DNA from: Chitinophaga pinensis
GTDB taxonomy: Bacteria > Bacteroidota > Bacteroidia > UBA4408
Assembly: GCA_945872355.1 (NCBI GenBank)
Contig: CAMBZU010000036.1
Location: forward strand, 1-34,009
DNA: 34,009 nt
Reading direction: 5' to 3'
A program made the position numbers and the translations under genes. The notes under the pieces were generated by a model. It saw nothing but the letters and a program-made list of their open reading frames with translations, was not told where the DNA came from and ran no database searches. This document shows, one piece after another, positions 12,071-14,330 of the stretch (positions within the stretch are counted from its first letter, which is position 1; each line of letters starts with the position of its first letter).

Positions 12071-12146
12071 GGTACCTTAGCTCAGTCGGTAGAGCAACAG
12101 ACTGAAAATCTGTGTGTCCCTGGTTCGATTCCTGGAGGTACCACCA
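12071..12146 (+). tRNA. tRNA-Phe (GAA), CCA encoded
   Basis: The acceptor arms GGTACCT (12071-12077) and AGGTACC (12136-12142) pair perfectly. The anticodon loop CTGAAAA carries GAA, the D arm contains AGCTCAGTCGGTAGAGC, and the T arm contains GGTTCGATTCC. The discriminator A is followed by an encoded CCA (12144-12146), unlike the neighbouring tRNA-Gln. Confidence 0.97.
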
Positions 12147-12153
12147 AAAGAAA

Positions 12154-12193
12154 AATAAACCCTTGTTAATGTAAAAATTAGCAAGGGTTTATT
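12154..12193 (+). terminator. Terminator of tRNA-Phe
   Basis: A 17-bp stem with one G-U pair: AATAAACCCTTGTTAAT (12154-12170) and ATTAGCAAGGGTTTATT (12177-12193), with a 6-nt loop and a short T-rich tail. It starts 7 nt after the tRNA's CCA. Confidence 0.75.
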
Positions 12194-12298
12194 GTTTTCA
12201 CTGCATAATTTACAGCGCAGTTTCACTGGTAGTAGATTTAGCGCGCTTTTCTATTTAAAAGTGAATAGCCCTTTTACGTACCTAACTGGCAATATGAT

Positions 12299-12337
12299 TA
12301 TGGAATTATTTGGAATTAGATTCCAAATAATTCCATA
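12299..12337. repeat. 18-bp perfect inverted repeat (operator-like) over the DUF4143 ATPase promoter
   Basis: Arm 1 is TATGGAATTATTTGGAAT (12299-12316), the centre is TAG, and arm 2 is its exact complement (12320-12337). Each arm holds two TGGAAT boxes exactly 10 bp apart (12301, 12311; complements at 12320, 12330), so four boxes lie on roughly one face of the helix. The right arm runs into the -7 box of the ATPase gene and ends 10 nt before its ATG. This is the expected geometry of a repressor operator; the binding protein is unknown. Confidence 0.8.
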
Positions 12338-12343
12338 TATTTG
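12309..12343 (+). promoter_or_regulatory. Core promoter of the DUF4143 ATPase gene, probably leaderless
   Basis: TTTG (12309-12312), 23 nt, then TATATTTG (12336-12343), a perfect TAnnTTTG box. The ATG at 12348 begins 4 nt after the box. Initiation usually occurs about 5-7 nt downstream of the box, so the mRNA would start at or inside the start codon. Both promoter elements are covered by or touch the inverted repeat at 12299-12337. Confidence 0.6.
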
Positions 12344-12347
12344 TTTT

Positions 12348-13508
12348 ATGATTCAACGTATTGCAAAAGATAAATTAAAAGATTTAGCGTCTAAATTCAA
12401 GGCTGTGGCAGTTACGGGAGCCAGACAAACAGGTAAAACAACGCTAGTTAAACAAGTATTTAAAGGCAAACCTTACCTTTCCTTGGAAAATCCAGATACC
12501 CGTAACTTTGCTTTAGAAGACCCTCGCGGCTTTTTAGATTCATACCCCGATGGAGCGATTTTAGATGAAGTGCAACGTGCTCCAATTTTGTTTTCATACT
12601 TGCAAGAAATATTAGATAATTCTAAAACAAAAGGTTTATTTATACTTTCAGGTTCAAATAATTTTTTATTGCAACAAACGATTTCTCAATCACTTGCTGG
12701 CAGAGTAGGGTATATTAATTTACTTCCATTTTCTATCACTGAATTAAAGAAGGCGAAACTATTGCCGTCTGACGATGACAGCCTTATGCTTAAAGGATTT
12801 TATCCGCCAATTTATGATCAAAATATTCCACCTGAAGATTGGTGTCCAAATTATATTCGAACATATATTGAAAAAGATGTTAGACAAATAAAAAACATTA
12901 CAGATCTTATTGTATTTGAGCGATTCATAAAATTACTAGCTGGTCGATCGGGGCAGGAACTAAACAATAGTGCTTTAGCTGTAGAAACGGGAGTAGATGT
13001 TAAAACAATTCAGTCATGGATAGGAATCTTAGAAAGTAGTTTTATAATTTATCTTCTGAAACCCCATTTTAAAAATTTCAATAAAACGATTGTTAAAAGA
13101 CCGAAAGTCTATTTTTATGATACAGCTTTAGTAAGCTATTTGTTAGGAATTCGAAATGCAATGCAACTCAAAACTCATCCATTAAGAGGTTCAATTTTTG
13201 AAAGCATGGTAGTAACAGAATTAATAAAGAAGAGAACAAATGCTGGTTTGCCAATTAATCTTTACTATTGGAGAGATAAAACAGGACACGAAATTGATGT
13301 GATTATTGATAACGGAAGTAAGTTGTTACCAATTGAAATTAAATCCGGAAAGACTTTTAATACCGAATTCTTTAAAAATATTGATTATTGGTGCAATTTA
13401 AGTGGAAATGAAAAATCTATTTTGCTTTATGCTGGCGATCAAAACCAGCAAAGAAGCAATGGCAAGGAAATATTAAATTGGAAAAAGATTATTTCTCTTG
13501 AATTATGA
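12348..13508 (+). CDS. AAA-type ATPase with DUF4143 domain (PD-(D/E)XK-like C-terminus)
   Basis: A 386-residue protein of the widespread ATPase/DUF4143 family, whose cellular role is not settled. The N-terminal P-loop domain has Walker A GARQTGKTT (24-32), Walker B ILDEVQ with D73-E74, and the sensor-like LSGSNN. A winged-helix-like middle region (LNNSALAVETGVDVKTIQSWIGILESS) precedes DUF4143. The C-terminus carries a PD-(D/E)XK-type signature: GHEIDVII with D317, then IEIKSG with E330 and K332. All catalytic residues look intact, so it is not a pseudogene. I use ATG 12348 because an upstream extension to 12192 would read through a terminator and the palindrome. The gene stands alone beside tRNA-Phe, consistent with an accessory insertion. 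Confidence in the family is high; function is unknown. Confidence 0.9.
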   Translation: MIQRIAKDKLKDLASKFKAVAVTGARQTGKTTLVKQVFKGKPYLSLENPDTRNFALEDPRGFLDSYPDGAILDEVQRAPILFSYLQEILDNSKTKGLFILSGSNNFLLQQTISQSLAGRVGYINLLPFSITELKKAKLLPSDDDSLMLKGFYPPIYDQNIPPEDWCPNYIRTYIEKDVRQIKNITDLIVFERFIKLLAGRSGQELNNSALAVETGVDVKTIQSWIGILESSFIIYLLKPHFKNFNKTIVKRPKVYFYDTALVSYLLGIRNAMQLKTHPLRGSIFESMVVTELIKKRTNAGLPINLYYWRDKTGHEIDVIIDNGSKLLPIEIKSGKTFNTEFFKNIDYWCNLSGNEKSILLYAGDQNQQRSNGKEILNWKKIISLEL

Positions 13509-13842
13509 AAAAAAGGGAATTATTACGCTGGTGATATATAATTTTTAGAGGCACTTAAAGCCTTCAAGGCTTGTAAAAAAGAGTTCGATAATTCTTCAGT
13601 AGCGTCCATAAAAAAGCAGAAAATGCATGTAAAGCAATTATACCAATGTGATTTATAAATTATGCCAATAATTTTAAATCTTGCATTGGTAAATGCCGTG
13701 AAACAAATTTGGGCCATTACTTATTTCACATCGGTATTGTTTTCCACGTTTTTATTTTCAGCTATTCGCAGTGAATTTATCATACATTTGATTGCTTTTT
13801 TTAGGTCAACATGAAATTTTAGTAAATCCAAATTATTAAATA
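13509..13842. other. Intergenic region with a long imperfect hairpin and no firm gene
   Basis: About 330 nt follow the DUF4143 ATPase. Apart from the hairpin at 13641-13691, I see no supported feature. Minus-strand open frames exist (13523-13717, and a frame without ATG upstream of it), but neither shows a recognisable domain, and the first runs straight through the hairpin. Confidence 0.5.
13641..13691. repeat. 51-nt imperfect palindrome / hairpin
   Basis: TACCAATG (13641) pairs with CATTGGTA (13684). After a 2/4-nt internal loop, ATTTA pairs with TAAAT. After a 1-nt bulge, AAATTA pairs with TAATTT around a 6-nt loop, TGCCAA. In total 19 base pairs form in three blocks. No T-run follows on either strand, so it is not a typical terminator. 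Confidence 0.6.
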
Positions 13843-13904: not shown

Positions 13905-14330
13905 TTGAATCATTCAATTAATACTCGCACTGCAAAACTTTCCTTCAATAAAGAAGAAGGTGTGCTTTATATTGAGCTTATCGCAGAAAATGAAATCAGT
14001 TTAGAAGATTCTATTGAACATATTAATGCCACTGAAAAACTTACGAATGGTGCTTTCCATTGTGCATTTATTAAAGCACTGGGAGATATTGACATTTCAT
14101 CGGATGCAAGAAAGCAAGGGGCAAATGCTGAAGTGCAAAAAAAATTAATTGCACAAGCTGTTTTAGTAAACTCGCTAGCCACTCGTATTGCTGGAAATTT
14201 TTACATTCGATTTAATAAACCAACCAAACCAACTAAAATTTTCACGAATGCAGAAGATGCTAAAAGTTGGTTACTTTATAAGAAAAAAGAGTTTGAAGAT
14301 GCTCAAAAAGAGCTCAGTTCAGATAACTAG
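13905..14330 (+). CDS. STAS-like (DUF7793-type) small protein
   Basis: A 141-residue soluble protein. The order of elements resembles Bacteroidota STAS/SEC14-like (DUF7793-type) proteins. These are an N-terminal strand AKLSFNKEEGVLYIELIAENEISLEDSIEHI, a central HCAFIKALGDIDISSDARKQG segment, then VLVNSLATRIAGNFYIRFNKPTKPTKIFTNAEDAKSWL. The N-x-L-A-x-R-x-x-G-N-F block and the KPTKIF block are the strongest matches. Such proteins are thought to be regulatory, but no partner is known to me. No ATG exists in frame upstream, so translation probably begins at TTG 13905, consistent with the promoter at 13843-13873. The gene converges with the FAH-family gene, leaving 12 nt. Confidence 0.6.
   Translation: MNHSINTRTAKLSFNKEEGVLYIELIAENEISLEDSIEHINATEKLTNGAFHCAFIKALGDIDISSDARKQGANAEVQKKLIAQAVLVNSLATRIAGNFYIRFNKPTKPTKIFTNAEDAKSWLLYKKKEFEDAQKELSSDN

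What the first reader, a model, noticed from the sequence alone, without database searches (positions are those of the whole stretch)
12299..12350. Operator-like 18-bp palindrome covering a leaderless promoter of a DUF4143 ATPase
Seen: a perfect inverted repeat (12299-12316 / 12320-12337) built from four TGGAAT boxes, 10 bp apart within each arm. It overlaps a perfect -7 box TATATTTG (12336-12343) and contains the TTTG that could serve as the -33 element. The ATG at 12348 is 4 nt after the box, so transcription should start at the start codon. Known: DUF4143 ATPases are very widespread with no agreed function. Inference: the gene is tightly repressed, perhaps by its own product or by a dedicated regulator, and translated from a leaderless mRNA. 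The four-box helical phasing suggests a tetramer or two cooperating dimers.
Basis: partly seen in the sequence, partly recalled or inferred. Interest (0 to 1): 0.7.

Follow-up and report, generated by a model that had tools for sequence, protein, structure and literature searches.

The report
Self-carried operator of DUF4143 ATPase genes
A perfect DNA palindrome sits exactly where transcription of a very common but uncharacterised ATPase-nuclease gene should start, and relatives of this gene across many bacteria carry their own matching palindrome or evenly spaced repeats at the same place, so the protein probably binds and switches its own gene, which gives a first testable handle on a huge family of unknown function.

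Summary
The palindrome is real: 12299-12316/12320-12337, 18-bp perfect arms, the longest in the window and the only copy in the genome. It lies on a TAnnTTTG -7 box ending 4 nt before the ATG, which puts +1 on the A of the ATG. In 81 orthologs (window plus 80; 51-96% protein identity, mostly unrelated flanks) about 80% keep a palindrome (core GGAAT-N3-ATTCC) there, with arms that covary. Palindrome centre to -7 box clusters at 26 or 34-37 bp (one helical turn), while box to ATG stays at 4 nt. Across the wider DUF4143 family other clades carry other palindromes, or direct repeats with periods of 22-23 or 32-34 bp (61% versus 6% of neighbour genes). In 40 ortholog genomes close matches lie almost only at the DUF4143 gene. 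Best explanation: a double-stranded operator carried with each gene, bound by its own product (AAA+/winged-helix/PD-(D/E)XK protein), repressing a leaderless promoter. Geometry and linkage are shown; binding and repression are inferred. The -33 TTTG part of the claim is weak. About one ortholog in seven has a second cognate palindrome just after the stop codon, so a role in mobility is not excluded. The family is PADLOC's PDC-S01, an abundant, unvalidated defence candidate.

The parts
12299..12337 (.). Operator-like palindrome: 18-bp perfect arms, 3-bp spacer TAG, four GGAAT boxes 10 bp apart within arms; -49 to -11 relative to the inferred +1
   Evidence: conserved and covarying in orthologs
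12336..12343 (+). -7 box TATATTTG (consensus TAnnTTTG), overlapping the right arm
   Evidence: sequence; at least 5 of 6 consensus bases in 72 of 81 orthologs, 4 nt from the ATG in 64 of those 72
12348..12348 (+). Inferred transcription start = first base of the start codon (leaderless mRNA)
   Evidence: box-to-+1 distance of 4-5 nt in F. johnsoniae (PMC6847099); not mapped experimentally here
12348..13508 (+). DUF4143 / AAA_14 ATPase gene, 386 aa (PADLOC PDC-S01): AAA+ domain, winged helix, PD-(D/E)XK domain
12417..12443 (+). Walker A (GARQTGKTT, residues 24-32)
   Evidence: G24, R26, Q27, G29, K30, T31, T32 invariant in 57 orthologs
12906..13058 (+). Winged-helix-like region (residues 187-237; GVDVKTIQSWIGILESSF), candidate DNA reader
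   Evidence: helices 187-199, 207-214, 218-230 and strand 234-237 in the model; T220 and W224 invariant; its role in binding is inferred
13290..13343 (+). PD-(D/E)XK-type active-site motif E315-x-D317 ... E330-x-K332
   Evidence: E315, D317, K332 invariant, E330 at least 90%; family assignment also in PMC12988326
12071..12146 (+). tRNA-Phe upstream of the unit; same-genus genomes G001 and G003 have tRNA-Phe followed by the DUF7793 gene with no DUF4143 gene between (empty site by synteny)

Best explanation
The palindrome is a double-stranded DNA operator that belongs to, and is found with, the DUF4143 gene. The gene's own product, an AAA+ ATPase with a winged helix and a PD-(D/E)XK nuclease-type domain, binds it as a symmetric oligomer, each half contacting two successive turns of the helix (GG pairs 10 bp apart), and so occludes RNA polymerase at a -7-box promoter that starts transcription on the A of the ATG (leaderless mRNA). 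This keeps expression of a potentially harmful nuclease low and self-limiting. Other clades of the family use the same design with their own palindrome or with 22-23 or 32-34 bp iterated sites. Shown: the site, its conservation, phasing, linkage to the gene and near-exclusive location. Inferred: that the protein is the binder, that binding represses, and that a signal (possibly infection) relieves it.
For: Conservation with covariation over mostly unrelated flanks; inverted or direct repeats upstream in 80% of orthologs and 61% of a broad Bacteroidota sample versus 6% of neighbour genes and 0-1% of shuffles; centre-to-box distance in steps of one helical turn (26 versus 34-37 bp) with box-to-ATG fixed at 4 nt; repeat periods of 22-23 or 32-34 bp in 24 of 25 genes with repeats; close matches almost only at the DUF4143 gene in 40 ortholog genomes and only there in the own genome, likewise the 22-bp iterons of the paralog on C26 for matches with at most one mismatch; 8-mer sharing upstream rises with protein identity while distal flanks do not, Mantel r 0.53, 0 of 500 permutations; operator architecture clusters on the protein tree; no excess of G/T over A/C mismatches (9 versus 19), against RNA pairing; same feature on plasmids of other phyla; AAA+/winged-helix fold like SSO1545 and Orc1/Cdc6.
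Against: No binding or expression data. The outer arms change sequence symmetrically in orthologs whose recognition helix is nearly unchanged, so the winged helix alone does not explain their symmetry; similarity of the winged-helix region does not predict the operator better than the rest of the protein (partial correlation about 0). 33 of 110 sampled genes show no repeat at the thresholds used, mainly in basal clades. Second copies after the stop codon are not needed for simple autorepression.
Confidence: 0.68

Rival explanations
1. The palindrome is the end (recombination or transposition site) of a single-gene mobile unit, and the nuclease-ATPase acts on it; being at the promoter is secondary.
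For: 11 of 80 orthologs have a cognate palindrome 0-70 nt after the stop codon, with no second gene copy behind it, and two 33%-identical relatives (L006, L009) are flanked on both sides by a different matched palindrome. Homology between close copies in unrelated flanks starts at the palindrome. Neighbouring genomes have the flanking genes without the unit.
Against: Most orthologs lack the second palindrome; palindromes track the promoter in helical steps; no target-site duplication or exact empty site was found; no copies without the gene.
Confidence: 0.12
2. The site folds as an RNA hairpin in a 5' leader and regulates translation or RNA stability.
For: As single-stranded DNA the strand folds into an 18-bp hairpin at -16 kcal/mol, z -7.2; arms covary.
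Against: The conserved -7 box lies downstream of the hairpin 4 nt from the ATG, so the hairpin is not transcribed; no G-U-type bias; helical phasing; iterons in other clades cannot form one hairpin; no Rfam hit there.
Confidence: 0.05
3. The site binds a host regulator (a dedicated or global repressor) and not the DUF4143 protein.
For: Many defence genes are controlled by separate repressors, for example RptR (PMC12255303).
Against: The site is found with the gene between distant hosts, close matches are almost only at this gene, different paralogs in one genome have different sites, and no accompanying regulator gene was seen.
Confidence: 0.1
4. The symmetric DNA is kept for its ability to extrude a cruciform that the AAA+/PD-(D/E)XK protein (whose fold hits include RuvB) recognises as a structure.
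For: Outer arms change symmetrically without change in the recognition helix; arms reach 22-29 bp in some relatives.
Against: GGAAT core sequence is nearly invariant; other clades use direct repeats that form no cruciform.
Confidence: 0.05

Closest known systems
PADLOC PDC-S01 (COG1373; AAA_14 + DUF4143)
   Same: The window protein matches the family over residues 1-369 (E 4e-98); single-gene, ATPase fused to a PD-(D/E)XK domain (PMC12988326).
   Different: The held papers that name the family describe no operator, promoter architecture or flanking palindromes in the passages read; defence is unvalidated.
Repressors of phage-defence islands acting on repeats or palindromes in the promoter (RptR, PMC12255303; WYL-domain regulators, PMC9122601)
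   Same: Promoter repeats bound by a repressor keep a nuclease system low.
   Different: There the repressor is a separate protein; here no regulator gene was seen and the nuclease-ATPase itself is the likely binder.
Autoregulated AAA+/winged-helix DNA-binding proteins with iterated sites (Orc1/Cdc6 with origin boxes; iteron-binding plasmid initiators; from own knowledge, fold match)
   Same: AAA+ plus winged helix, palindromic or iterated sites next to the own gene, helically phased.
   Different: Extra PD-(D/E)XK domain; no replication context; one unit per gene, on chromosomes.
Archaeal AAA+ ATPases SSO1545 (2fna) and PABY2304 (2qen)
   Same: Best structural matches over the whole length (E about 1e-7).
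   Different: Only 14-17% identity; no operator reported that I know of.

Membership tests
DUF4143/AAA_14 (PDC-S01) | Pfam AAA_14 followed by DUF4143 above curated cut-offs | tested here: met
   98 and 164.8 bits against cut-offs of 27 and 28.1; PDC-S01 326.8 bits
DUF4143/AAA_14 (PDC-S01) | Intact Walker A/B and PD-(D/E)XK residues | tested here: met
   G24-T32, D73-E74, D317, E330, K332 present and conserved
DUF4143/AAA_14 (PDC-S01) | Anti-phage activity | not testable with these tools
   Unvalidated in the literature held (PMC12988326)
Autorepressed transcription unit | Symmetric or iterated site overlapping the own promoter, conserved in orthologs | tested here: met
Autorepressed transcription unit | Site found with the gene and close matches absent elsewhere in the genome | tested here: met
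   a few weaker 3-mismatch hits elsewhere look like chance, and extra good hits in G012, G019 and G044 were not examined further
Autorepressed transcription unit | Product binds the site and lowers expression | not testable with these tools
   needs EMSA and reporter assays
Leaderless Bacteroidota promoter | TAnnTTTG box placing +1 at the ATG | tested here: met
   5' end itself not mapped
Leaderless Bacteroidota promoter | -33 TTTG element | tested here: not met
   only 16 of 72 orthologs have TTG at that spacing; -33 is also weak genome-wide in F. johnsoniae (PMC6847099)
Insertion sequence or mobile unit with palindromic ends | Palindromes at both ends of the unit | tested here: not met
   only 11 of 80 orthologs, and not the window, have a cognate downstream copy
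Insertion sequence or mobile unit with palindromic ends | Exact empty sites or target duplication | tested here: inconclusive
   synteny-level empty sites only

The most novel reading that the evidence does not exclude
DUF4143/PDC-S01 genes are self-contained, horizontally spreading single-gene units in which the nuclease-ATPase is parked on its own clade-specific, helically phased operator; the operator is both an expression switch and a resting or self-recognition site, so that loss of binding (for example on infection) at once induces and frees the nuclease, and paralogs in one genome run insulated circuits.
Probability: 0.25. Interest if true: 0.85.

Novelty: new variant of a known kind. 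Interest (0 to 1): 0.63.

Why it matters
DUF4143/COG1373 proteins (about 39,000 loci counted in one survey, ranked there as the fourth most common defence candidate in prokaryotes; PMC12988326) have no demonstrated function. A cognate DNA site that goes with the gene, is palindromic or iterated, and sits on the promoter gives a concrete ligand to test, predicts leaderless autoregulated expression, and lets each paralog be paired with its own site by sequence alone.

Tried and rejected
Chance palindrome: rejected. Dispersed repeat, MITE or terminator family: rejected, single copy in the own genome and close matches almost only at the gene elsewhere. Known RNA family: none there. Downstream copies as relics of tandem gene duplication: true only for L044, no gene remnant behind the others. 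Exact insertion boundaries: tried with relatives of the window, L083, L024 and L021; flanks too divergent or repetitive, so only synteny-level empty sites. Assigning operator specificity to the winged helix by partial correlation: no signal. No solved-structure homolog by sequence. The term DUF4143 occurs in only one held paper, in a T. thermophilus expression table.

Full report
OBSERVATION. The palindrome is exactly as described: TATGGAATTATTTGGAAT-TAG-ATTCCAAATAATTCCATA at 12299-12337. It is the longest perfect palindrome in the window (18 bp; others 14 and 13), against a maximum of 9-12 in most shuffles. It occurs once in the 3.4-Mb own genome, even with 3 mismatches allowed. The -7 box TATATTTG 12336-12343 and ATG 12348 are correct. 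The gene encodes 386 aa, AAA_14 + DUF4143, PADLOC PDC-S01.

ORTHOLOGS. 80 orthologs (51-96% identity in the aligned set) were fetched from different Bacteroidota and a few other lineages. Nearly all have a symmetric site just before the start codon. Inverted-repeat score at least 12 in 110 nt upstream: 75% of 77 orthologs, against 2.5% of 202 neighbour genes and 0% of shuffles. The core GGAAT-N3-ATTCC is almost invariant; outer arms vary (GGAATTAT, GGAAAAAT, GGACAAAT, GTCCAAAT, GCATTTTT) yet mostly stay symmetric; in the aligned sites the GG pairs lie 4-5 and 14-15 bases from the edge of the spacer, i.e. one turn apart. The flanks beyond the palindrome are mostly unrelated (Dyadobacter copies, which share one locus, are an exception), and homology between the closest copies begins at the palindrome. 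Hence gene and site are inherited and transferred together.

PROMOTER GEOMETRY. The distance from the palindrome centre to the end of the -7 box clusters at 26 bp (33 loci) and 34-37 bp (29 loci), one helical turn apart, while the box-to-ATG gap is 4 nt in 64 of 72 orthologs. A perfect TAnnTTTG 3-5 nt before the ATG occurs in 57 of 81 orthologs and 7 of 204 neighbour genes. In F. johnsoniae the box runs from -12 to -5 (PMC6847099); on that ruler +1 is the A of ATG 12348 and the palindrome covers -49 to -11, where a bound protein would block polymerase. Leaders over 10 nt are the rule in that organism (87% of predicted transcripts), so leaderlessness here is a noteworthy, conserved choice. The -33 TTTG is not conserved (16 of 72) and -33 is weak in general in that organism (same paper).

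DNA, NOT RNA. If the box is used, the palindrome is not transcribed. Non-complementary pairs are G/T 9, A/C 19, other 31, giving no RNA-wobble signal. The single strand does fold strongly, as any such palindrome must. Helical phasing argues for double-stranded binding.

THE FAMILY. In a phylum-wide draw of 61 genomes, 30 hold DUF4143 genes at E at most 1e-20. Their upstream regions show clade-specific palindromes or arrays: 61% pass a strict threshold versus 6.4% of neighbour genes. Where direct repeats dominate, periods are 22-23 bp (10 genes), 32-34 bp (14) and 13 bp (1), i.e. two or three helical turns. The type of site clusters on the protein tree (36 changes, 52.6 in shuffles, 0 of 200 as low), and upstream word sharing rises with protein identity while distal flanks do not. 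The own genome's other DUF4143 genes have different sites: 22-bp TTTCAAAAT iterons on C26 (at most one mismatch only there), GTCATTACGTTGAC repeats on C10, a CAAAACTTGCA palindrome on C2, TGTAAAGTAATA iterons on C18. Genes on plasmids of Moraxella, Sphingobium, Runella, Allochromatium, Roseivivax, Asticcacaulis and Ruminococcus show the same designs. Not all members do: 33 of 110 have no repeat at these thresholds.

PROTEIN. An AlphaFold2 model (pLDDT 89) shows an AAA+ domain, a helical region with a winged-helix-like unit (187-237) and a C-terminal alpha/beta domain carrying E315-x-D317...E330-x-K332. The best PDB folds are SSO1545 and PABY2304, then Orc1/Cdc6, RuvB, a maltose-system regulator complex and Avs4 chains. 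Walker A/B and nuclease residues are conserved, so ATPase and nuclease activity are plausible, not shown.

MECHANISM. The simplest account is self-recognition: the site is found with the gene, close matches lie almost only there, no regulator gene was seen beside it, and paralogs have private sites. A bound oligomer would repress the leaderless promoter. I put 0.68 on this. Inferred steps are binding by the product, repression, and relief by a signal. A weak point is that the outer arms change symmetrically while the recognition helix stays nearly the same, so a second contact (for example from the AAA+ domain, as in Orc1/Cdc6, from own knowledge) or a structural reason for symmetry is needed.

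SECOND COPIES AND MOBILITY. Twelve orthologs have a family palindrome within 70 nt after the stop; one of these (L044) is a tandem second gene, leaving 11 without a gene remnant. Two distant relatives (L006, L009) are flanked by matched palindromes of another sequence. Same-genus genomes and relatives of L083 have the flanking genes without the unit. So the unit moves, but no exact boundary or target duplication was obtained, and most copies have only the promoter palindrome; I keep 'element end' as a rival at 0.12.

NOVELTY. Self-regulating operators are a known kind; their systematic presence on a huge uncharacterised nuclease-ATPase family, with quantised helical spacing and a leaderless start, does not appear in the papers I could search (the library lacks most subscription journals).

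Noticed in passing
window 13509-13609; L021 and L022 after the stop codon: About 100 nt after the stop codon are shared (80-87%) between window, L021 and L022, ending in a GTTCGA...TCCA(C/T) motif; a similar motif is seen upstream of L024 and L027 and after the gene in L024, L027 and L028. It reads like a short minus-strand ORF or a degenerate tRNA 3' end.
   Followed up: partly
window 12071-12196; L021, L022: Three of the closest copies sit 130-260 nt downstream of a tRNA gene (tRNA-Phe, -Val, -Met), behind a terminator-like hairpin in at least some of them, suggesting tRNA-downstream regions as landing places.
   Followed up: partly
L044 4253-5407: Tandem second DUF4143 gene with its own palindrome, TATATTTG box and ATG; its Walker A reads GNTT instead of GKTT.
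   Followed up: no
L280 (Emticicia oligotrophica plasmid pEMTOL02): A DUF4143 gene sits in opposite orientation between L-ribulose-5-phosphate 4-epimerase and araA, with about 60 and 40 nt of spacing: a good place to look for an exact empty site.
   Followed up: no
G069 (12 DUF4143 genes in 4 Mb): One genome of the phylum sample holds 12 DUF4143 genes, several with 32-bp repeat operators of different sequence: a natural set for testing orthogonal sites.
   Followed up: no
L031, L032, L036 upstream: Intermediate operators: inner GGAAT core symmetric but outer arms asymmetric (left TTGTCTTTTT, right TTTTTCC or TTATCC), possibly caught between two outer-arm types.
   Followed up: no
window 13905-14330: Small DUF7793 protein gene next to the unit; in G001 and G003 it follows tRNA-Phe directly.
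   Followed up: partly
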